DNA of 64,000 nucleotides, from assembly GCA_963969365.1 (NCBI GenBank), contig OZ017752.1, positions 1,550,001 through 1,614,000 on the forward strand, given 5' to 3'. Positions 3,383 to 60,134 of this stretch are shown piece after piece. The notes under the pieces are model-generated. The model searched no databases and was not told the DNA's origin. It saw only the letters and a list, made by a program, of their open reading frames with translations. The DNA is from Asterochloris sp. CNOR1 (Eukaryota > Chlorophyta > Trebouxiophyceae > Trebouxiales > Trebouxiaceae). The position numbers and the translations under genes are program-made. Numbering within the stretch: the first letter of the stretch is position 1; the number at the start of each line of letters is the position of its first letter.

Positions 3383-6300
3383 CTGCAGGTGTCAGGTGTG
3401 GGACTTAGGCAGGCACGGGCCAGATCCTGTTCAGAGCTGCTGAACACTTTGTAAGGGAATGGTGCTATCCGCACAAAGACAGCGTCAGCGCGGATCAGGC
3501 TGGAGCATTGTGCGCTTCGATTCAGACAGCTGAATGCATGGCAGAAGTCGGATTGCTGTTCTGTTTTGAGCATGTTGAGCTGGACCTGGCGACTTCAGGG
3601 CCGACTTGCTGCTGCAGAGGCTGCACACGGGGGTCATGTCAAGCATGAACTGTAGCATCTGCACTGCGCTGCACAGAGGCTGGGAGAGGTGTTTGTGCCA
3701 AAGAGATTGTGATTGCTGAGCCTCCACTACCTCAAGCCTGTTGTGGTTGCCAGCCCGGCTGGAAACACACAAGCCCCACCTCCAGCAGCGCAGGACTGAG
3801 GCTCCACTCTTCCATCTCCTGCTGCTTCTCAAAGTTCTCGATGACCACAGCTGCAAACAGCTGGATCATGATCATGGGCACTGCCAGAGTGAAGGTCACA
3901 TAGAACAGGATGGACACCACCTTGTTGCCGCACTCGCCCTGCAGGCAGGCAGGCAGTGGAGGGCTCAGCTCTGCTGCAAAGCTGGGTCCCGTCTGGGCTA
4001 AATCTGATGCAGGCTGGGACAAGATGGCTGTTGCACTCCTCTGCACATACGCTGTCATCTCCAGGCAAACTGTGCCCCAGGCTGGCTGAGCTGCAACCAC
4101 TGCTGAGGACTCCAGAGGGCACACAGGGACTGCCACAGCCAGCAACATCCCACATAGCCCTTCGAAATATCACACAGTCTGGTCTGTACAATCCCAGGTT
4201 GGGGGTGCTCTCCATTGCAGCCGCAATGCAGGTCAGAACCCAGCGCACCGCAGCAGCATCGCAGTCTGGCGGCCGCACTGCGCAGTCACTGATGAGATAG
4301 GTCCAGTCATCCCCTGTAGAGATCCTGAAAAGGGTGATGGCTGCACTCCCTGCAGGTCAAAGGCAGCACATGAACCTCCTGGGATGTGTCCAGGCAGGAG
4401 CAAACTGTGTCGAGATTCACTAAGCGCAGCTGACTGAGCGGCAGGTGGCCACCATGAAGGTTCGCTGAGGACCACAAGACCCAGGTCCACCCGCAGGCCC
4501 CAGCAGTGACATGCAGCTGCAGAGCTGTGTTACTCTTGGCGCTGCCATCCAGCAGCTGCCCATCGACCTTCACATATAACCACAATCTCCAGGCTTACAG
4601 AAGTGCTCAAAATTGGCATGATGGTTGAGGGCTGTGCCGCGCTTTACGTTGCCAAAGAGCAGCACGCCCACATAGCTGTAGATGAACCAGAGAAGAGCAA
4701 TGAGGGCACCAACATTGTAGAAGGCTGGCAGGGAGATCATGAGGGTGGACATCAGGGACCTCAGGCCCTGCAGCGGGGCATGCACAGCTGCTTTGGATGA
4801 GCACCTCAGAGAGCACAACCCCTGCAGATGATAAGCGCAGCTGCAGCATGCGGGCATATACACAGCCTCTGTACAGTGGGCATGGATAGCGACAGACATC
4901 CATCAGTAGTATCAAGCAGCGCAAGGCATTTGGGCTCTGCAGCACCAGGGCAGGCAAATTGGCCAGAGTACTCTCCTGCCAGCAGGGGTGTCACAGAAGA
5001 CTGACCTTGAACTGGCGCATGAGCTTGAACATGCGTGTAACCCGCAGCAGACGCAGCAGCTTCTGGGCACGCAGGACTCGCAGCACCTGCACAGATGTGC
5101 TTTGCATCAGCTAGCACTGAAACCCTGTCACAGAGTGCCTGAGCACGATATTGATGCTGGGCAGGCCAGTCACGTACAGGCTGAAGGCAGAGCATGCATG
5201 CTTGGCTGTGGGAGTGCAGCCAGGTCACCTGCTGCAGCTGGCGGGCAAAGGCTGTGGAGATGAGGTCTATCACTGCTGTGATGACAAGAAAGAAGTCAAA
5301 TTTGTTCCAGCCCACTTTAAAGTAGCCCTTTGGTCCCAGCCCGATCATCTTGATGGTGGCTTCACCCACATACACCGCTGTGAAAGGGTAGTTGGCCAAG
5401 TCCTGCAGGTGCGGCTTTGGATTATGTCAGCAGCCAAATGATAGAAGACCAGTATGCACCCTGCCAACCTCAAGTACCAGCTGATAAGACCAGCTTCACC
5501 ATGTTTTGCTGGATTGGCAATACTTGACAGCTGATTGGACACTATGGGACGGGTGCACAGCTCAGAAGACCCAACCTGGGCTTTGGTCCACCAGGCAGGC
5601 TGATTGCGGATGGTGGCTGCCATGAGGCCAATGTTAACCACAATAACGCCTGTGATGAACCAGTCAAATTGCTGCAGGGCATCTGGAGTGTAAGTGCGTA
5701 GCGATATCAAGGCAACCACCATGGAAGCAGCGTGGCATGTGTCTGGGCTCCTCTCAACAGGGACTCATGAAGGGAGATTAATGTCAAGCTGACCATGCCT
5801 TGTCTGCAGCAAGCAGATCAAGAATGGCATGGGAGTGCCCAGGCAGCTCACCCTCATGTGTAAGAGGGTGAAGCAAAAGGTGCGCAGTTTGCCAGGTGGC
5901 CGGGCAGCCTTGTGCAGAGGTTTCAGCCTAAACACCATCTTGGCCAGCTCAGTCCACTCCTGCAAAGAGTCAGCTCAATCCAGAACACAGCTCAACGCAG
6001 GATGGATTGCTGAAGATGCCAAAGGGGAGTGGCAGACTGGAAAGCTGGCTGACAATAACCCAATACTGCAGAAGGACATGCAAATAGCTGAGCCTATGAC
6101 AGCCGCCTGCGGTGTGCTGCCCTCAAGCAGCTCTTGCAGACACCATCTGCTGCTTGTCAGTGGGACACACAATATCCACACAGGACCAGAAAGTGCAGCA
6201 TACACTGGGAAGAGTCCTGCATGCACCAGGCCCCACCTGCTGCTTGTCTGTCAGAAACGCCGAGCCTGTCTGACTCATGAGCCGGATCTTGCTGAACTGG

Positions 6301-9300
6301 TCAAAGATGACCCCAGTGTAGAGATTCATGAGGCAAAATGAACCAATGACTATGAAGAAGATGAAGTAGACAAAGCCCAGCCAATTTGAGTTGGGCTGCG
6401 GCTGATCGCCCTTGTTGTTGGGGGCTGCCATTGCAGCATACCAGAAAGCTGCAGGCAGAGACGAGGATAATGCAGGTGCAGGCCTGTAGATGCTGACTGG
6501 CACCGGCAGGCAGCACCTTGTCAGCAGCAATGCTCAGAGCATGAACACAGGTCATGCCAGCTTCAAGGTGCCTGCTGACATGCACTGAGCTGTTCTAGGT
6601 ACAAGAGCACATGCACGAGACAGCAGCAGCACTCACGAGACCAGCCATTCATGGTGACTGTGATGAATAGCGTGAGCAGAGCATTGCCAAGGTTGTCAAA
6701 ATTGTAGAAGGCATTGCTCCAGACCCTGGGCTTGTCTGGCCCCACAATAGGATCGGTGTACGTTCCCACACAAGCAGCCTGCAGCAATCATCTGTCAACG
6801 GAAGAGGGACAGGCACCAGCCATAGCCAACTGAGACTGCAGACAAATAGCTGCAGGCTACGCAACCTATACCCACTGCAGGTGCCCCAGCTGCTGAATGT
6901 GATGGCTGCAGAGCACACAGAGTCAGAGCTGAGACTGTTACCTTATTGGGGACAGTGGTGTCGTTGCAGCTGTAGAAGCGCCCACCAAAAAGGTTGACGC
7001 CCATGATGCCAAAGATGATGAAGTTCAGACAGAGCACGACTGTGACGTTGCCCATGGCAGCCAGTGACATAGTGAGTGCTCTGAAGACAAGCATCATGCC
7101 AGCGCTGCGTGTCAGGGTCCTGCACATTTGGAAACATGATGATCAGCATGTTGCAGGCGACTCAGCCCAAAGCAAGAGCACAAGTGGATGAGAGCTTGGA
7201 TGAGTGGCAGGTGAGCAACATTCTTGAGCGCTGCATGCCTCATAGCCACAAGAGACCTCATGCTGCAGTTGAGACGTGCTGACGTACATGGTGGCATGAC
7301 TAGGGCATTCATGCGACAGTGGCTAATGCCCAAAGCAAAGTCTGGTGCATGTCGGTAGATAAGCTTAGGGCACTTCTGCTGCTGCCTGCAGATCAGGGCC
7401 ACAACACAAGGCAGCTGCTGGCAAAGCCATCAAAGGGCTGCAAAGGGCGTCAATGTGCGATCGGGTCGGCTGGTACGTCAGGTGCTTGCCTGAGGGGCTT
7501 CAAGGCTCTGAGGACCCTAAGGCCCTTGATGAACTGAATCTTCTGGGCCAATGTGTCCAGTGCCAGCACCAGTGCTGACACGAGGACAATGAAAAAGTCG
7601 AGCTGCATTGCAGAAGCCAGGTTCGCTGCTCAAGTCAAGCTGGAGGCAGCAAAGGCACAGACCAGAGCACTGAGGTGCCACAGCCGGACGAAGAGAGGGT
7701 CAACATAGCGTCAAGCAGGAAGCCTGCACCTTGTTGCTGTTAGACTTGAAGTATATGGCAAAGCTGAAAGCCACAATCTTAGCAATGGCCTCCAGCCCAA
7801 AAATGCCGGTCAGCGTGGCATCAATTATATGCAACACCTGCAGCAAGGCCAGATCATTGTGGGCGATACTGTGCAGGATACCATATCTGTAGTGCTTGTG
7901 GCAGTCAGCCCTTGCTGCTGGTAGTGTGCAAGAGCATGCCAGATCTGTAGACAGCCACAGCATGAAAGATACCAGGCAGTAGACCTGCGCTGTCAATCTC
8001 AGGCTGTGTGTTGCCAGCTGGAGCCAGGCAAACAAGCAACACATGGTGCAGGGCAAGCACCAACGCAGCGTGCCAGCACCTTGTATTCCAAGCTGTAAAT
8101 CGACATCTTGGGTGTCTCACAGATCATCTGGCCACAGGAGATGGCAATGAAGACGCACATCATGTAGTCAAATCTCCTTTGAATGACAATGTCGTAGAGC
8201 TGCATTCTGAACAGGTTGTCGGGGGGGATGACCCACAAGCTCATCCCCTGAAGAGGTGGGATGCTCCGCTTGCCCAGACTGCTGGCCCTGCATGCCACAG
8301 GTCACACTCCACCGCAGAACGTCGGGACGCATCAGGGAGCACAGGTGCTTGGTGTGATCTGAGAGGGACAGCAGGATGTGCAGAGGTGTTGCAGAAGGAT
8401 GTGCAAGACCTCTGCTCTCGGCCCACACAAAGGGGCCTGCTCCACATTGCCGGCAGCAGACACCAGGGCGCTGCATGGCCCCACACCTGCTGTGGGGGGT
8501 CATGCAGCGAGGTGCGGGACACTCTGGCTGGGTGGTCACACTCTGATGACTCCACTCAATGGACGCACTTGCTGAGGTGGCTTGATGCACTCCCGGTGGA
8601 GCGCTGGTCGTCATCCACCTTGCGGCTGTTGGTCCGCCGCAGGCCTCCAGCGTGCAGCTTGTTCACGTTGTCCTCCACCAGCGCTGCAGGCTTGCCTGGA
8701 GGCTCTGCTGGCAAAGGCACCTTGCTGGGCACAATCGCCAGATCCGGGGGCAGAGGCCCCTGCAGCATGGGGCAGGCTGCAGCTTCCACGCTGGACCATG
8801 ACAAGCCCCAGGCACAGCAATGCCTGGCACAACTGACAGCTCCAGGGACAGAGGCGCCTGCTGCACAACATTGGCTGCCTTCCAAGAATAAGTCATTGAA
8901 TGCGGCTCCCACAGCCATCTTCTGTAGGCATCAAAGATGTCGGGCTGCCATGTCCTTCAGGGTTGCAGGAGGTTGCAAGGCTTCCAGGCAGCTGTCTGCT
9001 ACTCTGCAGACCCCGCAGGGCGGGGCGACGGGCCAGCCAGGCACCCACCTTGCCATCGAACAAATGCAGCAAGGCCATTGGGTGCAATCATGCAACAGCA
9101 GTGTGTCCTCACCATGCCATCAGATGAGCGCAGCATGGCCTTGCCATACTGGGCGTCCTCTTGCAGCTTGAAAGCCTCCTTGGCAGTGCGCAGGGCCTCC
9201 CGCACAGCTGAGCGCTGCATGTCCACTGCAACAACGCCGCCGGAATCCCCGTGGTCTGCTGTGGTGGGTACCAGGGGAACGCCCATAGGCCCCCTGTCCC

Positions 9301-12300: not shown

Positions 12301-15300
12301 TTAAATTGTCTGTGCATGAGCCTGCAGCATCGGCCCGCACATGCAATTTACCTAGCATGCCTGTCGAGCGACAGCATGCACACGGGCTGCCAACAACAGG
12401 GCCCTGCAGTGCAGAACTGTACAGGGCCGCCATTAGGCAGGCCACTCCAGGCACAGGTTCCTGGCTGCTCTCCAAGAGGATGTCCAAGATGCCGCCCCGG
12501 CCTTGACTACAGCAGATCAGATTTTCAACGCTGCACCCAACCGCTGCTGCAGCCTGGAGGAGGTCACCACACCAGTCTGCTAACTTGCCCCACACAAGTC
12601 GCTCTTAGCTCACAGGAGCGGCACGCTCGCCCAGCTTCTCTGCCAGGAATGCGAGTATGCTGCCCCGGCAGGCAGCAGGCACAGGGGCCCAAGCTGCTGC
12701 AGGGCACACAGGATTGCAGCACATGAGCTTGCACAGGTGCCTCACTTGGCTGGGCCGCGGCCCAGGGACAGCTTGCCCGGCAGCTTCTTCATCAGGGACC
12801 CAAGCATACTGCCCTGGCGAGCATCAGGCGCAGGGTGGCCGACTGGGAGGCCCCACAAGTCGTCCACGTCGTCGCTGTGCTTGGAACCCCCTGTCTTGTC
12901 GCTGCCGGCCCTGCTTGCCGCACGGCTGGAGATGACGGAGAGCCCGCGCTTGACCAGGTCCTTTAGCTGCCCGTACCTGCTCTGATTGGCCTTGTCTGCA
13001 GGGGGCACACAGGCATGGCTCAGGTGACTCCCTCAAAGACTGTAATCGGCTTGTCTGCAGGCAGCAGCTTCTTGAACCTGTTATTCGCTCTAATTAGCCC
13101 AGTCTGCAGGGGCACAAGGGGCTGCTCACTTGTTGTGTGGTGGTCACATTTGCAGGGCTTCATTGGCATGGCTTACGAACAGCCGCCAGCCCTGGCCTTG
13201 TCTGCAGTGCACACTGGTACAGCATGTGAGTCTGCCAGAAGGTAGCATGCTGTGACATCTGCCTGCAGCGTCGCTTGCTGTGGATGGCGTTGTGTACAGG
13301 GTGCACACAGGGGATGGCTTGGGCAGCTGTGCTTGCAGAAAAAGGCTTCAGCAAACTCTCACATGGCTGCTAGCCTGATTCTGAGCAGGCACTGTACAGG
13401 CACCATGCACTTCATGGCAAGGCTTGCCCTGAGTGATGCACGCAGGACTGTGGCAGGTTTCGCAAGACTCACATGCTGTGAAGGCTTCCTCAGTGGCATC
13501 TGCATTGTATTTGCTCTCAAAGGCCTCCATGATGATGGCCATGAACAGCGTGAGGATGACAAAGTAGCCGACTATCAGCCAGGCCAGCATGAAGGCTGCC
13601 GCGCCCCAGTTGTTTGCGGCCACCAGGGGGTACATCACCGTGTCGTAGTTTTCAAGGGTCAGGCACTGCAAAAAGAGGCTTGGCAGCTTGAGTCAGCGCT
13701 GCAGGGTCTGAGCAAGTGCAAGCTGTCAGGGGTGAGGCACGGCAGGCACATGCACACAACACAGGGGCCTGCACACACAGGCGGCCAGCGGGAGATGGTG
13801 CATGACTGCGACAAGACTGGAGGCTGCGAATCTTTTTGCGGTATACAAATCCTGGTCAGATGTATGGACCTCGGTGTCAAGCTGGCGCCTTCAAGCCATC
13901 GCTGCCTTCACACTTCTGACAGCATGACCACATTCCGAACTGTTGCATGGTGTGGTTGCTGGTCACTTCCACCTCTGAGCGCTTTGAATATGGCTACGCT
14001 GCCCTTGCAATGTCACTGATGCAGAAGCTCGGGTGCCAAAATGCCCTGCCACCTCCTGCAGTGATGCCTCAGGCCGACCCAAGATGGAGCACTTGGAGGA
14101 GATCCATGGACAGTACGCCCAACCCAACTCACCTGAAACATTGTGGCGATGGACATGTAGAAGGAATCAAAGCCAGGGACGATCACTCCTGGCCCCCCAC
14201 CGTACACGTGGAGGCCAATGATGGCAAACACCACCAGGAAGAGGGCCAGCAGGGCACCGACAGAGGCAAAGGATGATGCCACTGAGATCAGGACTTGGGC
14301 AATGCGCCTCAGGCTCTGCAGCAGGAGCGCAGCACAAGTCAAGCTGCGGCGGTGTTGACAGCAGCACGGGCATGGCAGAGGTAAGGCTGCAGAGCGGCTG
14401 TGTCATGGGGCCTGACTCTTGTCATGCCAGCAGCAGCGGCACAGCACACATGCTAACTGCAGGCACAGTGCTTGGACTAGGGGCAATGCCATGACAGCAG
14501 CAAAGGCACAGCACAACCCTGGCAGCAGCCATGTGGGCAGGCAATAGGGACCCTGCTGCCATGTTGATCAGTATATCACCAGCTATGAGCCTGTGCAGAC
14601 ATCATGCTCAGGGTGCTGCAGCCACCTGACACGTACGGCGTCAAGCATGGGGGCTCACCTTGACGTAGCGGAAGAGCTTGAACAGGCGCAGGACTCTGAA
14701 GGCGCGAAGCACGCGCAGACCTGACAGTGAGCTGTTTCCAGACCCTGACATCTGCAGGGACGGGAGTTGCAAGGTCGAGTGGCCGGGGCTGGCAGAAATG
14801 CATCATCCATTTGGGATGAGGCGCCTGCATCATCTGGCAGCGGGCAGCCTCTGCACCTCGGCAGCAGGTCACTGTGTGGCAGTGCTGGCCTGGGCAGCAG
14901 CAGGGACAGCAGACAGGTATCAGAGGCTTCTGGCAAACAGGACAGCCCCAGCAACAAGTAGCGCCACATGCATCTGCCAGGAGATGCTGGGACTGCCAGG
15001 GACGGTGCCCGACATAAGTTGCACAAGTCACACCTGGCACGGCATGCTGGCACTGCCAGGCAGGCCTGCTACCCACCTCCAGAGCAATCTCGACAACCGA
15101 GATTATCACGACAACAGCATCAAAGATGTTGAAGGCGTCGCAGAGGTACTCGAAGAATTGCAGTGCAAAGAGCTTCATGGCCATCTCGATGCAGAAGAAG
15201 CCTGTGAAAATCATGTTGCCAATGTTCAGCACACTTGCATATGTGGGCGACTCGCCTGCAGGCAGGCACACGCCAGGGCTCAGCTTTGTTGAGGCACAGA

Positions 15301-18300
15301 GGGCAGCAAGTGCCCACAAGGCCCCCAGGTCCGTCTACAAAAAGCAACTGAATGTGTCATGCGCAGGCGCCGCCAAAGCTCACCGTCATAGGTCATGGCA
15401 AGCAGGATCGTGTTGATGATGGTCAGTGCCAGGAAGAGGGAGGGGAACCAGGGGTGCTCCACCACCTGGCGTGTCTTCCAGCGAGCGTCAAACAGGTAGA
15501 GCTGCCACAGGGGCAGGTTGGGATCATCTGGGGGCCCTGTGGCCCAGCCCTGCACAGATCAGATGCCCGGTTGGAGCAGCAGACACGCCCAGCAGCATGG
15601 CAGGGGTGTCAACGAGCAGGCTGGGTCATTTGGCAGCGCTGTGGGGCATCAAACACGCCACACCGACGGAGTGCCAGGTCCGACAGAAGCAGGGACAATG
15701 CCCAGGCTTCCTCAGGGACTGACGGGGCCCAGGAACCAGCTCCTTGAGCCGGCAGCACCTTCGGATCGGTGGCCCCTGGTGCCAGAGGGTGTGGACAGCA
15801 TGTCAGGCAGCAGCAGCTGCCCCGCAGGCAGATGCTGACTGAGTGGCTACCCCACCCCTTGACTGCTCAGCTCAGATGTGGCAGCCCTGCTGCTGAAGCC
15901 GCCCTCGCTGAACTGGGCAGTTGACCCCTTGCTCAAGGTCCGCGCGGTGGACATCTTGCTCCAGGCGGCCTGCATGACACAATGCAGTTGGCCACTTGAG
16001 GGGTGTGTCTCATGCCGTTGGCCAGCCGGCAGCAGTCCTTTGCACAGCCTCCCTGGCGGGGACTCAAGTGAGCTGCTCAGGGACAGCTGCAGCTTTGTTG
16101 CCTGGCTTAAGGGGTGCCACCCGTCAGGCTGCCTGCAGAACCGAAACGTGCTTGTGGGGGCTGAGACATGCCAGACAGCCAGAGCGCAGCACCATGTGGC
16201 CTCTGTCAAGGGTAGGAGCTCTGTTTGTGCGCATATGCACAGATTGGGCTGTGCTGCCAGCAGGTTTGCTGCCTGCACTTGCTCTCAGCAGCGCTGCTGT
16301 GCAGCCTGGCTTCCAGCAACATGCCGCACCCTGCCGGCAGCCCAGGCTGAGGACCCTTGAAGTGCACAGACAGACCTCACTGGTCTCCTTCTTCTTCTTG
16401 GCATAGTCTGACACCTTCTTCTTGCCCTTGTCCATCATACGCATCAGCACATTCTTCTTCCTGCGCTTGCTCATCTTGCTGAGCCTGTTTTTGAACAGTG
16501 TCTGCGCCTTGGCAAACTTGATTTTGAGCACAGCCAGGAATAGGTTCACCTGCAGCAAGCATTCGCAAAGGACTGCATAGCATCCAAGCTGCTGTCAGGA
16601 GTGAGAGCGCAACTTTGGGTGGCAGGCGACCCTTCAGCAAATTCAGCAAGTGAGCTTTGTTGCTGCTATCAACCTGACTGCAGACAGCCACTGCACAAGC
16701 AGACAGGTCCCTCAGACAGCTCCAGCTCTGTGACATTGGCACAAGCAGCAGGCACAGTTGCAGAAGCACTGCTGTCCTCACTGGACAATGATGCAGATTG
16801 CGCTATGCTGCCAGGGCAAGACACTGACCACGATGTAGCACCCCAGCACTTGAATGAGGATGAAGAAGGCCAAGCTGGCTTCATTGCCATTGTCCCAGGT
16901 GCTGCACAGCAGCATGCACGTGGTCAGGGTTTCATAGCTGGGTATCGTATGGTACCACGGCGGCAGACCTGCAGATCTGGTGCGCTGGAGCAGTTGATGT
17001 GAGATGCTGCGGCAGGCCTGCATGCAGGCGGCTGCAGGTCAACCAGACATGCGACACAGTGCTGGGATGTGAACCAAGGTGCTCTGTGTTGTCAGCCCAA
17101 GAAGCCTTCAAGAGGACACCTAGTCCACGCACTTGCTGTGCATTTACCAGACACACGCCATCGGGATCCAGGTCATACAGCAAAGCTGCAGCAGGCACAT
17201 GCGCACAGAGGCCTCACCGGTACATTATGTAGTTCCAGGCAGCCATGGTGACAATCTGGAAGATGGTGACCATCGCCTTGATGATGTTGTCCAGGCCTGC
17301 AGAGTCCTGCAGGACCCCCGTGACTGCCAAGGCGTCCTCTCTTGCCTCAAACTCCTGCAGAGCACAGGGTACTTATTGAGATGGTTGAGCAGCAGCAAGC
17401 GTCCATCACCCCATGACTGCTGTGGGGCTGGCTCCTGCCTCATCTTCCTTAGCAGCATAGGGTGCAGATATTCACAGCAGCAGGGTCATGGCAGAAAGGT
17501 AGCCTTCAGTATTTGCGTGACCACCAGGAAGCGCTGGGCTTCCGTGAGGTGCCAATACAACCCAGCAGCAACTAGGCACATGGTGCATGCTGCTGTGAGA
17601 CCCTGTTGGACCGCTCAAAGGCGCCGCTGGGCTGCAATCAGGCATGGTCCTGGGGCAGCTGGGCGTGCATCCGGCACTGCTGACCTGGCAGGTGTAGTTG
17701 GCTGGGCACCTGCGTGCCCCTCCACAGCCCCACTCATCAGGATTGTTTGAGGGTGTGGGCTCTGTTGAGCCGTCGATGAGGCTGATGCATTCATAGTGGC
17801 CTGCCCCCGAGAACAGCATAATGCCCGCGATGCCAAACAGGAACATGAAGAACAGCAGCAGGCTGACCACAGAGACCAGTAGTGGTACTGCCTGCATGCC
17901 ATTGTCACAGCCTCAGAGATTCCCAGCGCATCATGTGCTGCACATGCATGCAGAAGCAGATTTTCCACGTCTTAGCCAGGAAAGTGGCAGCTGTCTTGAT
18001 TTGAGGGATTGCAGCATGCAACCTAGAGGGCACAGCTGCAGTATGAGCACATACAGATGGCTAATGTGATCTGAGCTAAGGCAGGTGACCATGTCAACAT
18101 AACACTGCACGCTCAGACATGCAGCAGCTCGGTGCACCTCTACCGCGCTCTAGGGGCAGAGCAGATAACTTGACAGGGCGACTTGCCTCCAGAAAGCAGA
18201 CCACAATGGCACGCAGTGACTCAAAGCGGGTGATGGTCCGCAGCGGCCTCAATGCCCTCAAGGCACGCAGTGCCTTGATGCTCTGTGTGTTGTTGCCTGC

Positions 18301-45500: not shown

Positions 45501-48500
45501 TGGGCAGCCCAAAGCACCAGTGCAGCATTGGACAGCAAGCAGCCCTGAGTAGACTGTACAGCGTCTGCAAAACAGGCAAGACTGTGAGCAGCTTTCTGGT
45601 GCCAGCTGGGCAGTGATGCGCTGCTTGAGCTTGCTGGTGTGCCCATGAATTTCATGTCCAGCATCTGCATGTAGCTGAGACACTCCCTTGTCAGCTTCCT
45701 GAACAGCTACACTACTGGCGCCCAGCAGGGCACAGTCTGCTTGTCAATTTTCGGTTGTCATCATTGCACAAAGCCAGTGCATTGCCTGCTAGCAGCACTG
45801 TGCATGCAGGCATGGTGCCAACCGACTGCAGAATCCTGGACACATTACAACTCCCCAGCTCCCCAGCAGCGGCACCCCTCAGACACAGACTGATGGCTCA
45901 CCCCTGCCAAGGCCAGCTCTGCAGCGGCATAAGAAACGCCAACAGATCACAAGCACCCACCTTCTCATCGTCAAACTCCCCCGCAGCCCCGCCCTTCTTG
46001 GGAGGCCTAAAAACCCTAGGGTTGTACTTGACCACCACCACTGTAGAGGTGTGGCCCACCAGGTTGTTGGCACGGGCATGCCACTGATCACGAGCCAGCT
46101 GCCCGCTGACGTGGAGGGGGGATTTGAAGCTGTTGCATACGCCCAGACTGCTGCCCACTGCAGGGTGACAGCGCTATGCTCAGCGCGGAGCTGGGCTGTT
46201 CCAACGAGATGCTTCCCTCATCCTTCCTCTGTCCAAGAACTGCCTTGCTTGGCACCAGGCACCCACTTGGCTCTGGTCTGCAAGGGCTTTGAGCAGAGCC
46301 ACAGCAGCTCATGCTGTTCATACTGGCACTTGACCCAGTGGTACGCAGTGGCATTTAGAGCCAAAAGGAGATGCCAGCCGACTCAGCTGACCACTGATGC
46401 ATGGCCCAAGGTCAGATGTACATGGGCGTTTCCACACTCTCAACTGCAGGAGTGCACCTACACTTCTGGCAAGGCAAGTGAAGATGCCCGATATAGCACT
46501 TGTGTCCAGCCCCTTCCAGGGAGGCCAGGCAGTCTCAGTGTTCTGGGACAGGCCACATGCAGCCAGCTACCAAGGCCAGCCCCAGATGCATGATCGTGCG
46601 GCGTCAGACTATGCTGAGGCCAAATCTCAGCTCGGCAATGACCGCACGATTCTGTCAGTGCACCAATGGTTCTGTCAGTGCACTTGCGCCCAACAGCCCA
46701 TGTGTTGCCTGCAGGGCACTCACATGGGGCCCAGTCCAGGCGCAGAAAGAAGGTTGATGTGCTGAACCCATGGCGAAACGGCGTGGTGATTGTGGCCACC
46801 GGCTGCCACCCATCTGTCCGCCAGATGATGACGCACTTGTCATCAGCTGCACTGGCCAGGTAGGTGCCCACAGGGTCCCAAGCCAGACCCTTGACAAAGG
46901 ACTTGTGGCCCTGCAGGAGACAAAGTGCATTCAGGACTGGCATGCCAGATGAGAAGCTTGATACAGAGCAAGTAGCTTCCCAGGGTGTCCCAGGCCAACA
47001 CCTTCAGGGAGGTGTAGTGCAGCAAATGCAGATGGACAATGTCAGACCTGCACTTCCTGAATTTCTGCCAGTCGCCTCTTGTAGGGGCAGCACAGGTGGG
47101 CAAGCTGACACACTGCCTGCAGTGGCATGCAAGCCTGGACCATGCACACCTGCAAGGGCAGTGTTTGCCATGCATCCATCACAGCAGCACGCCTATGGAA
47201 TGGTCCTGCCAAGCATGACCCACCTGCAGAGTGCGCACACGCTGCCCACTGGCAGGGTCCCAAATGATGATGGAGTTGTCGATGCTGCAGGAGGCCAGCA
47301 GAGCGTCGTCAGGGGCCCAGGCCAGGTCATTCACCTGCAGCCAGCAGACATGTTGGGGTCTGCACTCACATGCTGCAGGGCGCGGTCAGGGGCAGAGGCC
47401 AGGGGATGTGCTTGCAGACGAAAGCATCAACCTGGCACATGTACCAATGTGGGTACATAAGCTGGCCTAGGGACCCTGCCACCTGGACAGTTCTTTAGGA
47501 GCCAACATAATGACTGGCCTCTCAGGCTAGATGCACATTGATGTTGCAACTCACAATGCTGGCAGCGCACACTGTCGATAAGGGGCTGGGCTCGACAAGG
47601 ACAGCATGGTGGCGCATCATTTCTGGCGAGCTGATAGCCAGAGATCATGCTAAAGTGGGGGCGAGCACCTGCTGTCGGGCAGCTCAGAGGCTCAATTGGT
47701 AGCGCTGCAGTGGCCTGCACAGAGCAAGCATGTGCCCTTGGCCCCACCTGGTTGTCATGCCCTCGCATATGTTTGCTGACCCGCCAATTTTCCAGGTTGG
47801 GTCCATCAGACGAGCCAAAGGCTGCCACTGCCTTGCCGCCCTTCAGCTCATACAGGAGCACCACCTTGTCGTCTGAGCCTGCAGCAGAAGTCCATTGCAA
47901 CTGAGGGCGACTGCAGAAGTGGAGCCGCAGGCTGCCACAGCTGCGCATGAGCTTGCCCAGGCTTGTCATCTGAGCCTGCAGGCGGAGAAATCTCAGATGA
48001 CGGCTTTTGGCCACCTCAAAAGTTTGAGATCAAGCTGCCACTGCCTTGCCTCAGGAAGTCACCTTGGCGCCAAAGCCTGCAGGGCGAAAGGCCGACACCA
48101 GCATCTGTTCTGCCCGGCACTTCCACCTGAGAGTAATGCTGCAAAGGCAGCCACATGGTCTGGGAGCTCCCCCTGCGGGTTGCATTCAGCTACACTGCAC
48201 ATTTCAGGTCAACACTGGACAGCACCACACATGATACTGTCCTGGACACTTACGCAGTTCTCAGTAACATGAAAAGTCAGCCTTGGCACTGCCTGGATAC
48301 CAGGTGCATCTGGTCGCTGAGCTGAGCCAATGCTTGACCTGCCTGCCCGGCCACTTCCCAGAGGTCACCTTTGAGCTCCTCAGCATGTGCTGGTCTGCTG
48401 CAGCTGCCCACAACAATGCCTGTCATCTGCCGCGATGCAGCAAAGGTGAGACCATGCTGCAGCCCATTCCCTTGGGGGCCAAGGTGCCTCACCTGAAGCC

Positions 48501-50228: not shown

Positions 50229-53200
50229 ATGCGGCAAACTGTGGATCAGGAAAACCGGAAGGCCATTGTGCGGGGGACCATCTGCCTCATCTACTTGGTG
50301 CGACCTGAAGCCTGGCATCTCTCGGATTTTGCTGCAGAGCCCTGTCACTAATCTCAGCGCCACCACCTACGTGATGCAAAGCTGGGACCTGCCCTCTTTC
50401 AAGCTCGCTGCGGCACTCAGGAGACTGTGTGATGCCTCTAATCGCCTTCCATGCTGGTACACAGACTGTCGCATCCTATGGTAGCTGCGGCACCAGGGCA
50501 CCATCTCACAGTGTCGCCATCCTTGACAGGGCACTGTTTTGGCGCATGCACCACTGCCAAGTTGTCAAGAGCATGCTCTGCTCACTTGCAACAGGCTTGG
50601 GTCAAACAAGGGAGCTGCCGTGCCTCTAAGGCAGCCCCTGTTCAAGCTTGCTGAGGCATCACAGCCGCTTCTAGGACCCTCTGGTGCCTGCAGTTGTCAG
50701 GTTGGCCCGTGCCCTGCCCTGTGGTATAAAATCTCCCCTTGGGAGACCAGGGCTATGGCCATGGTGCTCTGCGGTGTGTCTACTGGGTGCAGGCCTCTGC
50801 CCTGATACCCCAGTCTCTCGCGTCCAAATTGCAGATCTGCCTGTGAGGTTGACGTTGACTGACTGGCACAAGCAGCTGCCCTGACGCCTTCACCTTGCCT
50901 CTGCCCTGCAGGTTGAGATCTGCCTGTGGGTGGTCATCATGGTAGCCATGCCTGCCATGGTCAATGACCCCAATATCGCCATCACCTCTGCGCAGACGGG
51001 GACGCTGCTGGCTGTGGGTACGGCAGGGTCCACGGTGTGTGCTTCACTTGCAAGTTGGGTTCGCGTCAAAAGCTCATCTGCACTCACTGTCAGCGCTCAC
51101 CGCACCTGTCTGTGTTTGCTGCGTGTGGCCATGGAACCTGAGCCACTTCACTTGAGCCGGCGCCCTGCACAATTTCACAGCTGCGTAACGTCACAGCCGG
51201 GCACAGCGTAGCGCAACTGGCACGATGTGGTCAACAGGCAAAATCCTCCCTCATGCCAGCTCCTGCCAAACGCTACGCGTGACCTGCAGCTGCGTCATGC
51301 CGCAGCAGGGCACAGCATGGTCGAACTGGTACTGCCCTGCAAGGCGCCAACAGGCCTCACAGCAGGCATGCAGGAGCATCCAAGAGCTCCCTGCTGTACA
51401 GCTAGCTGACACCTTCTCAAATCATGCAGATTGGCAAAGGCGTGGCAGCAGCCATCATGGATGCCATCGATCCCCGCATCGGCATGATTGGGGTGCTGCT
51501 CACAGTTGCAGCCTTCAACAGCGCCTTTGCGCTGAGCAATGGCCTGCTCATGTTCTGCTTCTTCTGGGGAGTGGGGAGAATCTTCCATGTGAGCTCAGCT
51601 TCTGCAGCACCAAGCAGTGTGCAGCAGAGGCTCTGCATGTGGTCCGGGGGTTGCTGTGTTCAACATGCTGCTGCTGCAATCAGCTGCTGCTGTGCTGACG
51701 CTGCAATGACAGGCAGACCCTGTGGACCTCTTACCAAGAGCCACTTCAGCTAAACGCCCAGGACAGGTAGCAGAAAGCAAGCTGGGTCAGTCTGCTGCTT
51801 GCAGTCCTCTATGGGATGCCATAGATAGTGCATGCCTTCGTCCAGCTCACACGACCTGTCTGCAGTCTCCTGAGTGTATGGCAGCCTTTGTCATTCCAGC
51901 GAGTGCACTAGAAGGTGCAAGCAAGACCTCAGTGCCAACCCCTGTCTGCAGTCCTCTGGGTGGGTGGCAGCCACGCGCCTCATCTGCACCTGGACGCCAG
52001 AGGAGGAGCGTGGCGCTGCGCTGGGGCAGTTGTCCTTTGCATCCAGGGTAAGCATTCACCAGACCTCCATCTATCCTTAGCCTGCACCTGAGCTACGTGC
52101 TTGGCGGTGCCTTGGTGGCGCTGGCTTGACACTGTCCTGCACCGCTTGAACCCTCCCTGCGCTGACCAGCAGCTGGGTTTTGTGCAGCATCTGGCTCTGA
52201 GACTCCCACTCACTGCCTGCAGCTGGGCTCCATGTTGCTCAGTCTGAGGCCGCAATGCACATGTGCTCCACCAGACACAGGCAGACTCATAACCACTGAC
52301 CTCTGCAGCTGGCATTCACGCTGGGCCACCATGGCATCCTGCAATGCAACAGGGTCCCGTGTCGGTGAAGGGGACTACTCCGCCCAACCTCATACCTCAC
52401 CAGCTTGTGCCAAACTTCCATCCACTGCGCCTCCAGCCAGGAATAATGTTCAGGCCTGAGGCCACACTTCACATGCACTGCGCCAGCCTTGACAGACTTG
52501 CAATGAACTGCCTCTGCAGCTGGGCTTCATGTTGGGCGGTGCCGGCCTGGGCGGCTTCCTCCTGATGGGCTACAGCTGGCGCTTTGTCTTCCAGTTTGTC
52601 AGCGTGGCAGCCGTGCTGTGCGCAGCCGTGCTCACCTTCCTGGTCCCTGCAGCAGCGCCCCACTCCCTGACTTCTGAGGATGGCGCCAGCCACGCAGACT
52701 ACTGTATCACTGTGCCCCGTGACAACCGTCCCAAAGTGAGCCGGATGCAGAGAGCTATGGGATAGCCTGCTGCCACCTGTTGCGCGAAAGGTATCACTCT
52801 TAGATGGCCAGACTGCTACATCACAGTGCCCTGGTGTATGCGGCCTGCGGTGGGGCTATCATGCCTGGAGGGTGCAGGCGTTCTCTCAGATGCCGCCTGC
52901 TGCGCTACGGCATGAGCAGCATTGCTGGGCCCCATGGCCAAGACCTCCAGCAGAGGAAAAGAGGCTTGTTGGGTTTGTGCTGCTGGCCATTGGCGTGAGA
53001 GTGCTGGGCTGCAGTGCCAATCAGATAAAGTTTCAGCGCTGATGGCTCTGTGCTGCTGCCTGCACACAGCACTGCAGCACATCTGGGGCGGCTCAGGTGC
53101 ATGTTTGGCATAAACCATCTACACATGCTGCTGTTAGTACTGGCTGCAGTCGTCCACAAATTCGATCGAGAGAATCGTGCTCCAGATTGCTGGGGACCCA

Positions 53201-54974: not shown

Positions 54975-55083
54975 CCCTGTGGAAGTCAGCCAAATCCTTT
55001 CTGGGTCGACATCTAGTCAGGAACAGTATCCACTTCGCGTTTGGCACATGACCAGGCGCCTGGACACCCGACCATTTTTGGAC

Positions 55084-55088
55084 TGTAA
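55084..55088 (+). terminator. Polyadenylation signal TGTAA for the MFS transporter
   Basis: TGTAA lies about 110 bases after the transporter stop codon (54972-54974), a normal distance for a chlorophyte 3' UTR. Confidence 0.55.
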
Positions 55089-55382: not shown

Positions 55383-57611
55383 TCAAGCATACTGGCTCTG
55401 TTTGCTAAGGTTGAACATGTAGGCAACATTCTCCTCAGGGGTGCCCTGGAGAACTCCGTGCCCCAAATTCAAAATGTGTCCCTGGCTGCCGGCTTTAGCG
55501 ATGCACCCTTGCACCGCCTCTTTGATGGCATCCTGCGTTGCAAAGAGAATCATGGGGTCGATGTTCCCCTGCACAGCTGTGCTGCTGCCATTTGCCAGGC
55601 GCTGCCGGGCATCCCCCATGTCCACAGTCCAGTCCAGACCGACAACGTCTGCGCCTGTCTGCCCCAGGCGCTCTATAAGGCCCCCGCTCCCATTTGCATA
55701 CAGAGTGACTGGGGTGTCTGGGTGCTTGCTCTTGATGATCTGAATGATCTTCTCATTGTAGGGGCGTGACCACTTGTCCCACATCTGCAGCATGACATAT
55801 GAGGCTGTCCAGAAATGAGAGCTTGTGTGAGTATGCAATCATTGTGCTGACATTTGCAGCACAGCAAACCACTTGAGCTGGAGTCTAGCTCTGTGGTGGC
55901 AGCCCCGCTTTGGTGATGGACAGCATTGTCTCAACCAAGTTGGCAGTCATCATGGCCAGCGGCAGGAGCTCAGCAAAAGTGAGCCCAGCGGTCACACAAG
56001 TAGCTGTGCTGCTGGCTTCAGCCTGTCATCATAGATGCTTCCTCTGATGTTGCTGCCAGTGGTTTGCCTGACCAGGCCGCAGCACCTGTGAGGGACCTCG
56101 GTGTCTCAGGCAGCTGGGCCATCTCCTTGGCTGCTCTCATCCCAGTGAACACCGCACAGCATCTCAGCTCACCTGCGGCGGCAGCTGCCCCCCCCAAGAG
56201 TCAAAGAGCTGTATGCACTGGGCCCCCGAATCAATCTGGAAGTTGCTGTAGACGCCAATGGCCTCGGCCAGGTGGGACAGCAGGGCATCCAGGAGCTGGG
56301 GGTTGGTGTGAATCATGGTTTTGATCTCCTTGTACAGGCCAGAGCTGGCTCCCTCGACAACATAGGTGGCCAGCGTCCAGGGGCTGCCCACAAAGCCAAG
56401 TACGGCTGCCTGCAGCACACAGGGAGTGGGCTCAGTGCATTGCAGAAGACCAGAGGCTTGCGCAACGTCCAGAGGCTGACAAGGACAGCTGCCTGCAGCA
56501 TACATGGGGTGGGTCCAGGGGGCGTTCATATTGCAGCAAGGAAGAGGTCACTGCAACGTCTGCAGGCTGCGTGTTCCCCACATCTAGGGCAGCCAGGAGT
56601 CAGCAGGGCCCTGGACTTGAACTGTGCATTGCATACGACTATGAGCACTCGCAGTGTCTGACCTTGTCAAGGTGGGCTGAAGGTGCTGCACCCACCAAAT
56701 CACTCTGCAGCAACTCTGCTCGTTGATGCAGCTGCGGCCACAAGCAGCAAGGTCAACCCCACAGCCTTGTAGCAAGCAAGCTGTTGCCAATGTGTCAAGA
56801 GGGCAGCCAGGTGTTAGCTGACCTGACCCCTGACTTCTTTCCTCAGGGCGGTAAGGGCCTCCCCGACAAAGCTGAGCTGGCCGAGGTCAATCTCATGAAG
56901 CTGCTTTATCTGCAGGGTGCAGTAATTGAATGGCGCAGGGAGGAGCAAATGCTGAACTGAGCCAATGCAGCTGGCATACTTGGAGTAGTGCAGCACCAGG
57001 CTCGGCTGTTGCTCAGCAGCCATGCACTGCAGCCTGCCCCATTCAGGCATGCTGATGTCTGCTCAATGTTGTAGCTGCCAACTTCACAAGCCATGCCAGC
57101 CAAGGTGTGCTTGCCTGCTCCATGGACCTCACAGGCCTGTCAATGATGGGTCCCTTGGCATCATCGATCTCAAAAGGGACGCCAAGAGCTGGCAGGGGTG
57201 TCAAGATGTCACTGCGGCAGACATAGGTATCTCTCAGCTGACACTCTGCATGGTCTGCCGGGCAGCTGCTGAAGCACATGTGGCGGCTGGGCAGCACTGA
57301 CCTGAACAGAATGACGCCATCTGGTTTGAAAGACTTCCAAGGCTGCAAGCTGATCTCTACAATGAGGTCCGTCGTTTCAGACCTCTCCCTAAAAGAAGGG
57401 TGCCTCTTGGCAAGGTCCCTGTACGCTTTCTGATAGCGGCCTGCCTGCCTCATCATCCTGCATCAGAAAGGAAGCAACCCTTAGCTGCACTTATGACACC
57501 TGCCTCTGCAAATACTTTGGAAGCCCCTCAGGCTACATGCCCAAAGTTCTGCTTACCAGCAAGGAGGCCTTTCCACCTTCTCCCCACGAGCAGCTCTGAC
57601 CATCAAAGGCT
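55383..57611 (-). CDS. UROD: Uroporphyrinogen III decarboxylase (UROD/HemE)
   Basis: Decarboxylates the four acetate side chains of uroporphyrinogen III to give coproporphyrinogen III in haem and chlorophyll synthesis; plastid-located in algae. Exons in coding order: 57557-57611 ([14 protein letters not shown]), 57303-57457 (the invariant MMRQAGRY, then [19 protein letters not shown]), 57115-57211 ([20 protein letters not shown]), about 56823-56909 ([20 protein letters not shown]), 56173-56409 ([20 protein letters not shown]) and 55383-55784 ([50 protein letters not shown]). The substrate-binding Arg of MRQAGRY, the DILTP Asp and the C-terminal LGHG motif are all present, so the enzyme looks functional. 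The intron after the SMEQ codons has a GC donor (57109-57114). A transit-peptide exon should lie between 57640 and 58000, but two overlapping frames there are equally plausible. Confidence 0.96.
56484..56515 (-). repeat. Echo of a UROD exon 5' end
   Basis: On the minus strand the true exon opens after tgtgtgctgcag with codons [13 protein letters not shown]. Upstream the intron carries tgtatgctgcag followed by codons [10 protein letters not shown], a shortened copy with the acceptor intact. Confidence 0.75.
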
Positions 57612-58020: not shown

Positions 58021-60134
58021 ATGACAACATTATTACCTGGCACACCCGGTGTGATCCTGACGGAAAAGATGGTTCTGGCCAAGGCCCGGGCTGAAAGGTA
58101 CGGTCAGACCATGCATGTACCATGTCTCCCGTGCCTGTCTCAGGCACTCAATGGCTGCTGCATGCCACTGCAGGCTCTGTGATGTCAAGGCTCTCAACTG
58201 TTGGGGTCAGGACCTGGCAGATGTCACTGTGTTGACGCAGATGCCGAATGTGCAGGTGCTCTCTCTGTCAGTCAACAAAATCGGATCCCTGAGGTTAGGG
58301 CTGTGTCTTTACCCTGGTTGCTACCTGCTGAGGTGCATCTGCCAAGGCTGCAATGCGTTGCTGACATCCCCACCATGTGCAGGGACTTTGCTTGCTGTTC
58401 AGCACTGCAGGAGCTGTACCTGAGAAAGAATGAGGTTAGCCTGCTGGTGCCTCAGAGTCCGATCCTTTTCGCAATAGTACTGGCTTGGCCTTGTGATGCG
58501 CTTGGTACTTCACTAGTCATGCCGCAGCAGTTTCGACAGGTTGACCATACCTCCACCTAATGCTGCAAGCATTCAGGACAAGTACTCAGTCTAACGACAG
58601 GGCTCTGCAATGCTTGCAGATCGCTGATCTGGTGGAGCTGCAGTGGCTGGTGCACCTCCAGGATTTGCACACTCTCTGGCTGTCCGACAACCCCTGCGCA
58701 GAGCTGCCACACTACAGGGCTCAGGTCTGCTGCACGCTGTGTGAGGAGCCTTTGTCTGGAAGGGTGCTGCTGTGCAGGCTTGCTCGGCAGCAGGCTGTGC
58801 ATGCTTGCCCTCCCCAATTGCTGCTTGTGAGATGCCCTTGGTGCATTGCTGCCACACCTACGAGTTGCAATAATGCGCGCAAGCCCTGCACCTGGTCAGC
58901 TTAGTGCCACCTCTGACAGATCTGGCCTCCTGACCAGCTGGCAAATCCTGCCTGCACTCTGCAAGAGAAAACGCTCTTGCTGGGAGGGCTGGGAGCTGAG
59001 GCGTGACATGACAACTGGCTTCTGCTTTACTACAGGTTGTATCCTTGCTGCCCGGGCTGAAGAAATTGGACAACGTGGACGTCACCACCCAGGAGCGCAA
59101 CAGTAGAGGGCTGCAGCTGAACAGATCACCAGCAGCGCCCTCGGGAGCCGCTGCCTCCATTCAGGCACCAGCCGCACCACCACCGTCGCCAGCAGCAAGG
59201 GCTTGTGGCCCCCAGCAGGCACCAGCTGGCACTGGGCAGACAGCTGCAGGGAGCTCACCTGCTGCACCTGAGCCGCGGTCAGCCTTGGAAGTCAGGGGTG
59301 CAGGCGCTGTGCCCCCAGAGGTAGCAGATGGTGTGCAGCCGGCTGATGCCCAAGGTGCCTCTGACGCAGCAGCGCATGTCGTGCAGCAGGCTGCCGCGCA
59401 GGCTGCCATGGCGCCGGCACAGCAGCCAGCCGAGGCACAGCAGCGGGAGGGACCAGCTGCTGCAGCATTGAGGCCTCCCCTGTCCAGGACGCCGTCAGTA
59501 AGCGCTCGTGCCTGCTTCTGGTTGCTTGGTAGCACTTTCAATTGTGCAGGACCTTACTGGAGAGACTGCTGCTAGGCTTGCATGGGCAGTGTCAGCTGCT
59601 GCAGCATCAAGGCCTTCCCCTGCAAAGGCGCCTTGAGCAGGCATTCTCTCAGGCTTGAAGGAGCGTCTTCCAACATTGCCTTGGAGTGCAAAGGTGTCAT
59701 GTTGCAGGGCAGTGAGGCCAGGGAGAATGGTGCTCAGCAGCCTGTACAGCTGCAGGGGCCAGGGCAGGTGTGTTACAGTGCATGCTTGCTGCATGCAGTA
59801 TACAGTGTCTGCACTGCACAGTCACAGCAGTGTCTGCATGGAGTAAGACATGCGTTCTGATGTTTGCAAAAAGTAAAAGCAATAGTCAGACCAAGACAGC
59901 ATATGAGGGTCCCTGCAGGACATGAGGCGGCAGGCTTCCAGGCGGACCAGCGCACGGAGCAAGGGCAGCAGCAATGTTCTGTATGCTGTCATGGCACTTC
60001 TGTCAGAGCTGGATGATTATAGCTTGAGGCTAGTTGGTGCTGAGGTCCGCACACTGCACACTGTGTCCCTTTATTTTGAGCTGCCAAGCTATCTGAACTC
60101 GCTTCCTTCTATACTGGGTGCTGAGAACTTCTGA
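58021..60134 (+). CDS. CFAP410: CFAP410 (C21orf2/LRRC76-like) ciliary leucine-rich-repeat protein
   Basis: Basal-body and cilium-associated LRR protein, linked in animals to ciliogenesis and to the NEK1 kinase in the DNA-damage response. Exons: 58021-58097, 58174-58293, 58383-58433, 58620-58724, about 59036-59497 and about 59919-60134, with matching phases. The N-terminus LTEKMVLAKARAE and VKALNCWGQDLADVT match the family start (LTRKMVLxxAKA, VRKLNCWGxxLxDIS). LRR units follow: VQVLSLSVNKIGSL, LQELYLRKNE, LHTLWLSDNPC; then the cap LPGLKKLDNVDVT. A long Ala/Gln/Pro-rich linker leads to a basic stretch and the conserved C-terminal helical region NVLYAVMALLSELDDYSL, known in the family as an oligomerisation domain. 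The linker is larger than in animals. The start ATG is the first in frame and gives the family-like N-terminus. Confidence 0.92.
59592..59640 (+). repeat. Echo of a CFAP410 exon 3' end
   Basis: The exon end at 59449-59497 reads cagctgctgcagcattgagg then cctcccctgtcc. About 145 bases into the intron, 59594-59636 reads cagctgctgcagcatcaagg then ccttcccctgca. The copy lacks the donor. Confidence 0.8.

What the first reader, a model, noticed from the sequence alone, without database searches (positions are those of the whole stretch)
6120..59640. Exon-edge 'echoes': introns carry serial decayed copies of the neighbouring exon boundary
In XPF, DPB4, HIRA, the MFS transporter, UROD, CFAP410 and the channel, introns contain one to three degenerate copies of the adjacent exon's first or last 20-70 bases, together with the splice-site context. 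Matches include 20 identical bases (27052-27071 and 27217-27236) and an ungapped alignment of about 70 bases (23895-23970 and 23655-23730). Most copies have lost frame or the GT/AG. Seven unrelated genes in one window suggest a genome-wide process. Candidates are repeated short tandem duplication across exon-intron junctions as a mode of intron growth or birth, or decoy/recursive splice sites. Introner elements would instead be similar to one another and not to their own flanking exon, so this looks like a different process.
Basis: partly seen in the sequence, partly recalled or inferred. Interest (0 to 1): 0.86.

Follow-up and report, generated by a model that had tools for sequence, protein, structure and literature searches.

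The report
Worn exon-edge copies inside introns
In this alga-like genome many introns carry worn copies of the edge of the exon next door, which look like the remains of old short tandem duplications across exon-intron borders and so offer a way to date and measure how introns grew.

Summary
With a gene finder trained on 264 kb (window plus two 100-kb stretches of the same genome), exon edges match their own intron far above chance: 98 of 1048 edges (9.4%), against 9 of 3138 with swapped introns (0.3%) and 6 of 1048 inverted. In 125 high-confidence introns, 37 (30%) carry an echo. The signal peaks at the junction: about the last 40 exon bases plus 10 intron bases at donors, roughly mirrored at acceptors. 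Copies lie 55-519 bp away (medians 145 and 101) and are mostly single. The few young long-unit pairs are tandem duplications.

Best explanation: short tandem duplications fell across genes. Those crossing one splice junction could be harmless, because the outer splice site stayed in use. They remain visible because the exon copy is constrained while the intron copy decays. A simulation without junction targeting gives a similar profile. Young long-unit copies are scarce, so activity seems mostly past. Decoy or recursive splicing is not supported; introner families are not seen. The closest known phenomenon is "exon stuttering" of bird dot chromosomes (PMC12954441); this looks like an old, low-copy, widespread version of it.

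The parts
24736..24809 (+). source: XPF exon end plus donor site
   Evidence: GHMM; human XPF aligned without a gap at the junction
24964..25036 (+). echo of 24736-24809 in intron 24801-25411, 82% identical; the following intron sequence also matches (continuation score 28, control mean 14.9)
23657..23736 (+). source: XPF exon end
23897..23976 (+). echo of 23657-23736 in intron 23731-24177, 72% with gaps, 69% ungapped
26642..26672 (+). source: XPF exon end
   Evidence: XPF homology
26814..26844 (+). echo of 26642-26672 in intron 26673-27214, 87%
27205..27250 (+). source: acceptor plus XPF exon start
   Evidence: XPF homology
27042..27086 (+). echo of 27205-27250, 85%, includes the 21 identical bases
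28329..28372 (+). acceptor echo of 28416-28459 (XPF), 76%
29516..29551 (+). acceptor-side echo of 29636-29670 (XPF), 78%
32028..32053 (+). donor-side echo of 31913-31938 (XPF), 88%
37258..37303 (+). acceptor echo of 37346-37391 (DPB4-like histone-fold gene), 72%
37622..37657 (+). donor echo of 37466-37503 (DPB4-like), 76%
37885..37923 (+). acceptor echo of 37986-38024 (DPB4-like), 85%; preceding intron sequence also matches (continuation score 33, control mean 15.5)
41468..41553 (-). donor echo of 41631-41716 (HIRA), 69%
43081..43107 (-). donor-side echo of 43215-43242 (HIRA), 89%
44386..44432 (-). acceptor echo of 44225-44269 (HIRA), 79%
46969..47019 (-). acceptor-side echo of 46857-46907 (HIRA), 67%, at threshold
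47375..47417 (-). acceptor echo of 47298-47340 (HIRA), 74%
51855..51886 (+). acceptor echo of 51941-51972 (MFS), 84%
52295..52326 (+). acceptor echo of 52507-52537 (MFS), 84%; preceding intron sequence also matches (continuation score 40, control mean 15.2)
59580..59642 (+). donor echo of 59440-59503 (CFAP410-like LRR gene), 74%
35615..35636 (-). donor-side echo of 35704-35725 (gene 34084-36721), 91%
1682..1721 (-). acceptor-side echo of 1565-1603 (channel), 78%
4481..4562 (-). donor echo of 4589-4670 (channel), 63%, weak
6137..6168 (-). donor echo of 6227-6258 (channel), 78%
8821..8865 (-). acceptor echo of 8723-8767 (second channel model), 78%
13087..13116 (-). acceptor echo of 12979-13009 (second channel model), 84%; further copies at 13193-13214 and 13276-13311
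15599..15644 (-). acceptor-side echo of 15495-15542 (second channel model), 73%
17376..17462 (-). acceptor echo of 17278-17369 (second channel model), 66%, weak
19523..19573 (-). donor echo of 19907-19958 (second channel model), 72%
19620..19654 (-). acceptor echo of 19320-19355 (second channel model), 83%
21103..21166 (-). donor echo of 21248-21311 (second channel model), 69%
21607..21649 (-). acceptor-side echo of 21460-21506 (second channel model), 72%, at threshold
56371..56569 (-). UROD pair 56371-56478 / 56463-56569, lag about 83; seen only in the pair list, exon call here doubtful

Best explanation
The echoes are the remains of short direct tandem duplications (units of roughly 15-300 bp) that fell across gene bodies. 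Shown: the copies are local, in direct orientation, specific to the own intron and peaked at splice junctions, and the few young long-unit examples are head-to-tail tandems. Inferred: a duplication inside an exon changes the protein and is mostly lost. One that crosses a donor is harmless if the upstream donor stays in use; one that crosses an acceptor is harmless if the downstream acceptor stays in use. The spare copy then becomes intron and the intron grows by one unit. The exon copy is held by selection while the spare copy decays, so exon-edge pairs stay recognisable long after intron-intron pairs have faded. That gives the junction peak without any targeting. It works like the 'exon stuttering' of avian dot chromosomes, in low copy number and on all three contigs sampled.
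For: Local excess: ungapped pairs (S>=16) 4.2-6.6 per lag per Mb at lags 60-200, about 1 at 250-300, 0.1-0.2 beyond 500. Own intron against swapped introns: 98/1048 against 9/3138. Direct against inverted: 98 against 6 of 1048, and 61 against 0 at SW>=40. High-confidence introns: 43/250 edges and 37/125 introns, against 10/1220 control edges and 4/250 inverted. Junction profile 0.09-0.12 per base against 0.02-0.05 away from it and 0.001-0.005 at far lags. Junction-spanning pairs exceed random placement (33 against 18.0, 29 against 18.8, 18 against 6.6). Young long-unit pairs: C3 stretch 74539-74608, lag 73, 70 bases at 94%, across a donor; C1 stretch 68732-68944, lag 75, three units across exon and intron; C1 82358, lag 56, 47 bases at 100%, in an intron. 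Echo rate rises with intron length from 2 of 102 edges (<100 bp) to 15 of 50 (500-599 bp). Mismatches almost even over codon positions. Simulation gives a similar profile and identity spectrum. Human XPF aligns without a gap at the junctions of two echo-bearing introns.
Against: Continuation of homology into the intron, which a tandem origin predicts, is significant (p<=0.05) in only 8 of 33 donor and 5 of 32 acceptor cases (about 3 of 65 expected by chance). This fits double-rate decay but does not prove tandem structure for the old cases, and several short high-identity echoes show none. Of 54 near-identical pairs at lags of 30 or more, only 7 match over at least 60% of the lag; the other 47 are shorter fragments that do not tell tandem from dispersed. 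Pairs of exon with intron that do not span a junction are not above random placement (34 against 30.5, 27 against 31.0). Microhomology at young breakpoints is inconclusive: mean 0.82 against 0.35 by chance, n 11. AG is kept in acceptor echoes more than in the exon part, 28 of 34 against 96 of 160, which pure decay does not explain unless alignment bias does. The observed exon-side fall-off is steeper than simulated. No relative was available to show an unduplicated state. Gene models are my own and overcall introns.
Confidence: 0.8

Rival explanations
1. Local copy-paste repair (SDSA or template switching) inserts dispersed copies of nearby exon edges, as in vertebrate repair-mediated duplications, rather than tandem duplication.
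For: Most old echoes lack detectable tandem continuation (52 of 65); 47 of 54 near-identical pairs at lags of 30 or more are short relative to the lag; human proximal duplicates of up to 619 bp include splice sites (PMC2671141; abstract, part 1 of 3 of Results and passages seen).
Against: Direct orientation, 98 against 6 inverted; the long young pairs are head-to-tail tandems; the local excess falls off by 250-300 bp.
Confidence: 0.13
2. A junction-targeted process (coupled to splicing or transcription) duplicates exon borders preferentially.
For: Sharp junction peak; exon-interior 40-mers have almost none; intergenic/UTR blocks have few local pairs, 3 against about 17 expected at the intron rate.
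Against: Untargeted simulation gives a similar peak. The observed donor peak-to-intron contrast (about 105 to 37 per 1000) does not exceed that of the simulated old burst (about 73 to 16), so no excess remains to explain. My intergenic calls cover only 5-9% of sequence against ~26% published for Asterochloris, so one search is weak.
Confidence: 0.08
3. The echoes are kept by selection as decoy, recursive or alternative splice sites or pseudo-exons.
For: Acceptor echoes keep AG in 28 of 34.
Against: Donor echoes keep GT only in 16 of 36, as ordinary exon GT does (48 of 103); codon-position mismatches nearly even; lags of ungapped alignments show no multiple-of-three preference (9/10/10).
Confidence: 0.05
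4. Introner-like mobile introns, or an assembly or composition artefact.
For: None found beyond common words such as GCTG and TGCAG, which may raise control scores.
Against: Two inter-gene intron matches only; swapped-intron, inverted and far-lag controls are low; an assembly error would be expected to give near-identical copies, and none of 98 is at 95% or above.
Confidence: 0.02

Closest known systems
Exon stuttering / sequence stuttering, avian dot microchromosomes (PMC12954441, Genome Biol Evol 2026; section 7 part 1 of 2 and keyword passages seen)
   Same: Introns hold partial copies of the adjacent exon's edge with its splice site; exon part median 36 bp; in more than 90% of cases the source lies at most 1 base from the border; both exon-derived and purely intronic repeats; GC-rich genes.
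   Different: Birds: 190 of 5,572 dot-chromosome introns (3.4%), 1-44 copies (median 4), recent and length-polymorphic, mostly dot chromosomes. Here: 90 of 524 introns >=80 bp (17%), 37 of 125 high-confidence ones (30%), 1-3 copies, old-looking (81 of 98 are 65-85% identical), on all three contigs sampled. The two screens differ in method, so the percentages are not strictly comparable.
Repair-mediated duplications in vertebrates (PMC2671141; abstract, part 1 of 3 of Results and keyword passages seen)
   Same: Close local duplicates of comparable size, sometimes including splice sites; declining rate.
   Different: Pairs within 50 bp were removed there to exclude tandems; an inverted exon copy is described; a junction peak is not described in what I saw.
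Tandem genomic duplication model of intron gain (Rogers 1989, as described in PMC4974935, passages seen; Drosophila cases PMC2891723, abstract seen; Gao and Lynch 2009 not held, known only as cited and recalled)
   Same: Tandem duplication crossing exon or junction sequence, with one copy made intronic; the potato case crosses an intron-exon boundary.
   Different: Those make a new intron. Here the existing intron is lengthened; the new-intron signature is 1 donor and 1 acceptor of 98.
Short paired duplications ('doublets', Thomas et al. 2004, seen only as cited in PMC2671141)
   Same: Abundant short local duplications.
   Different: Nearly identical pairs in those studies; here an old set with exon junctions as the lasting witness.
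Introners (recalled; PMC9860276 seen in a search listing only)
   Same: A route to more intron DNA.
   Different: Introner copies resemble each other across genes; these do not.

Membership tests
Exon stuttering (avian type) | Partial copies of adjacent exon in own intron, above control | tested here: met
   98/1048 own against 9/3138 swapped
Exon stuttering (avian type) | Copied region lies at the exon border and includes the splice site | tested here: met
   Junction-peaked profile; alignments run at least 3 bases past the junction in 36 of 51 donor and 34 of 47 acceptor echoes
Exon stuttering (avian type) | Multi-copy imperfect tandem clusters | tested here: not met
   1 copy in 81, 2 in 13, 3 in 4 echo-bearing edges; TRF lists 17 rows in the window, 16 of them with 3.1 copies or fewer
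Exon stuttering (avian type) | Recent, length-polymorphic within species | not testable with these tools
   One genome only; identity spectrum argues for age
Tandem-duplication intron gain (Rogers) | Lag equals intron length | tested here: not met
   1 donor + 1 acceptor case of 98 within 3 bp
Tandem duplication as mechanism | Direct orientation, adjacent copies | tested here: inconclusive
   Direct orientation: met. Adjacent in the long young pairs; for echoes as a whole, continuation significant in 13 of 65
Introner | Introns in different genes similar to one another | tested here: not met
   2 inter-gene pairs at E<=1e-5 among introns of 50 bp or more in 264 kb
Decoy or recursive splice site | Splice dinucleotides conserved above surrounding echo | tested here: inconclusive
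   GT 16/36 against 48/103: no; AG 28/34 against 96/160: higher, cause unknown
Repair-mediated duplication (SDSA) | Breakpoint microhomology, filler, deletion | tested here: inconclusive
   Microhomology only: mean 0.82 against 0.35 by chance, n 11; filler and deletion not tested

The most novel reading that the evidence does not exclude
Exon stuttering is not a bird oddity but a general eukaryotic mode of intron growth, to some degree tied to gene bodies or junctions. In this algal lineage it ran as a burst that, by rough scaling of single simulation runs, added perhaps a quarter of the intron DNA, and left in a large share of introns an exon-anchored fossil that dates each step.
Probability: 0.2. 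Interest if true: 0.82.

Novelty: new variant of a known kind. Interest (0 to 1): 0.57.

Why it matters
How introns lengthen is usually hard to see because both copies of a duplicated intron segment decay. When the duplication takes in an exon edge, one copy is held by selection, so the event can be recognised, polarised and roughly dated. The screen used here (own intron against swapped and inverted controls) needs only one genome and could be run on any intron-rich eukaryote, which makes the question of how much intron DNA comes from tandem duplication directly testable. It also extends a very recent bird finding to what is most likely a green alga.

Tried and rejected
Tried: whether donor GT is purged in echoes. 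Against average echo identity it looked depleted (10 of 25 kept, 13.6 expected), but against GT inside the exon part of the same echoes it is ordinary (16/36 against 48/103), so I dropped the claim. New-intron signature: rejected. Insertion from a diverged homologue (copies born diverged): rejected, because mismatches are nearly even over codon positions. Steady-rate duplication: simulations with uniform ages give 19% and 29% of pairs at >=90% identity, against 3 of 145 seen. Each of the four age scenarios was simulated once, with unit sizes, indel rate and splice-site rates that I assumed; exon-internal duplications and those spanning a whole intron were left out. Introner families: not seen. 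Rfam: no match in the window at gathering thresholds. Tandem Repeats Finder lists 17 rows in the window, mostly short periods, and so misses nearly all echoes. Breakpoint microhomology: of the pairs found, those of low 3-mer diversity and the exon-only ones were left out of the mean. Papers searched (open-licence PMC papers, top rows listed only): no report of this in algae or plants seen in the listings; the Coccomyxa and Asterochloris genome papers (keyword passages) do not mention it in what I saw.
Full report
What was asked.

Setting. The window is C7:1550001-1614000 of a 56.4-Mb, 21-contig genome, GC about 0.58. Size, GC and intron density fit Asterochloris glomerata (56 Mb, GC 56-62% in 98% of the genome, 9 introns per gene; PMC6652019, passages seen). 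The name is my inference; no call states it. Coordinates 'C1' and 'C3' below count from the start of these stretches.

Gene models. A self-trained HMM converged on 59 genes and 635 introns (median 189 bp) with clean splice signals, donor CAG|GTGAG and acceptor CTGCAG|G. It overcalls: about 2,400 introns per Mb against about 1,560 expected from the published 173 genes per Mb and 9 introns per gene, intergenic share 5-9% against ~26%, and some exons of 2-12 bp. Pfam supports seven of eight window segments tried (ERCC4, histone fold, HIR1 propeller, URO-D, LRR, MFS_1, Ion_trans; the N-terminal XPF segment had no Pfam hit). That XPF segment matches human XPF in the PDB at 5e-60 and has no gap at the junctions of introns 24801-25411 and 26673-27214, both of which hold echoes; it does show a one-residue insertion at a doubtful 3-bp exon elsewhere.

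Is it more than chance? Local direct similarity is far above the far-lag level: ungapped S>=16 pairs occur 6.6 per lag per Mb at lags 60-100, 5.5 at 100-150, 4.2 at 150-200, 2.2 at 200-250, 1.0 at 250-300, and 0.1-0.2 beyond 500. Of 276 local pairs, those spanning a junction exceed random placement (33 against 18.0, 29 against 18.8, 18 against 6.6), while exon-intron pairs that do not span one do not (34 against 30.5, 27 against 31.0), intron-intron pairs are fewer (64 against 85.7), exon-exon pairs more (55 against 37.8) and intergenic pairs fewer (1 against 9.0). Exon edges of 40 nt with splice bases removed hit their own intron in 33 of 422 and 31 of 428 cases, against 25 of 8264 and 31 of 8396 for introns of other genes; exon-interior 40-mers do not clearly (1 of 168, 2 of 172). 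With longer junction queries, 98 of 1048 edges in 90 of 524 introns (>=80 bp) score >=34, against 9 of 3138 swapped and 6 of 1048 inverted; at >=40 it is 61 against 0. In 125 high-confidence introns the figures are 43 of 250 edges and 37 introns, against 10 of 1220 swapped and 4 of 250 inverted edges; window 18 of 39, C1 7 of 46, C3 12 of 40 introns; 17 of 36 genes.

Anatomy. At donors, the last 40 or so exon bases and first 10 intron bases carry a downstream partner at 0.09-0.106 per base, falling to 0.02-0.05 further into exon and intron. At acceptors, the last 10 intron and first 30 exon bases carry an upstream partner at 0.09-0.124, falling to 0.03-0.04. Far-lag level 0.001-0.005. Lags: donors median 145 (55-384), acceptors median 101 (63-519). 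Alignments are 63-93% identical in the rows printed, none of 98 at 95% or above, and 69 of 98 have gaps. Copies per echo-bearing edge: 81 one, 13 two, 4 three. The longest of the 32 printed is 101 bp at 79% (C3 intron 44430-45082); in the window the best-scoring is 24964-25036.

Mechanism. Inverted matches stay near the control level. The long young pairs are tandem: lag 73 matched over 70 bp at 94% across a donor (C3 74539-74608); lag 75 in three units across exon and intron (C1 68732-68944, 93-95%); lag 56 matched over 47 bp at 100% in an intron (C1 82358); lag 71 over 48 bp at 98% (C1 69059). But of 54 near-identical pairs at lags of 30 or more, only 7 match over at least 60% of the lag. 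Tandem continuation into the intron is detected in 8 of 33 donors and 5 of 32 acceptors, about 3 of 65 being expected by chance. Codon-position mismatch rates of 0.231, 0.211 and 0.266 (about 1,350 sites each) say that the intron copy decays without coding constraint and the exon's third positions add a little. Echo rate grows with intron length, 2 of 102 edges below 100 bp to 15 of 50 at 500-599 bp, as expected if duplications lengthen introns.

Why at exon edges? I simulated tandem duplications placed uniformly over exon-intron-exon pieces, accepting those that cross one junction or lie in the intron, with the exon and splice sites constrained and the spare copy neutral. The junction peak appears without targeting. 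With an old burst (0.3 substitutions per site) the donor profile is 75 (-30), 61 (-10), 42 (0), 21 (+20), 16 (+40) per 1000, and the identity histogram is close to the observed one; the observed fall-off into the exon is steeper (35 of 105 left at -80, against 34 of 75). Uniform ages give a flatter profile and 19% or 29% of pairs at >=90% identity; observed, 3 of 145 for lags 60-249. So the simplest account is old, declining tandem duplication, with exon edges as the lasting witness. Scaling the simulated event number to the observed peak suggests very roughly one junction-crossing duplication per three introns; this is a model figure from single runs with assumed rates.

Results against or outside this account. 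Acceptor echoes keep AG in 28 of 34, against 96 of 160 for AG in the exon part; alignment ends may favour this, or spare acceptors may be tolerated or used. Intergenic/UTR blocks have few local pairs, 3 against about 17 expected at the intron rate, which could hint at a gene-body bias, but my intergenic calls are poor. Microhomology at young breakpoints is inconclusive. Without a relative, no empty site could be shown.

Comparison with the known. Exon stuttering on avian dot chromosomes (PMC12954441) shares the defining look: adjacent exon edge with its splice site copied into the intron, exon part median 36 bp, sources at the border. It differs in being recent, polymorphic and multi-copy. [quoted passage not shown] its discussion mentions a gerbil gene group (data not shown). 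The potato case (PMC4974935) and Drosophila cases (PMC2891723, abstract) show tandem duplication as a source of new introns; here that signature is almost absent. Repair-mediated duplications (PMC2671141) are similar in size and also duplicate splice sites. I saw no report for algae or plants in the listings of searches, which cover open-licence PMC papers only.

Verdict.

Noticed in passing
window, C1 and C3 stretches: Acceptor-side echoes keep the AG (28 of 34) more than ordinary exon AG in the same copies (96 of 160); donor-side GT does not (16 of 36 against 48 of 103).
   Followed up: partly
window, C1 and C3 stretches: Local duplicate pairs seem rarer in intergenic/UTR blocks than in introns (3 segments in 2.32M position pairs against 119 in 16.34M), though my intergenic calls are unreliable.
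   Followed up: partly
window 998-22823: Two adjacent minus-strand models (998-7289 and 7365-22823) look like pieces of one large multi-domain ion channel that my gene finder split; Pfam Ion_trans was tested, and found, on the first piece only.
   Followed up: no
L008 (C1:560001-570000) 8732-8944: A unit of about 75 bp repeated three times, 93-95% identical, covering an exon end and a short intron: a possible intermediate stage of intron lengthening.
   Followed up: partly
window 24125-24592: Serial copies of one acceptor region in XPF (lags 92, 193, 264, 356); my gene finder calls some of them as exons, so this part of the XPF model is doubtful.
   Followed up: partly
L019 (C3:1070001-1080000) 2307-2399: A young 44-bp tandem duplication (96%) inside sequence called as exon; 44 is not a multiple of three, so the exon call or the gene's intactness is uncertain.
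   Followed up: no
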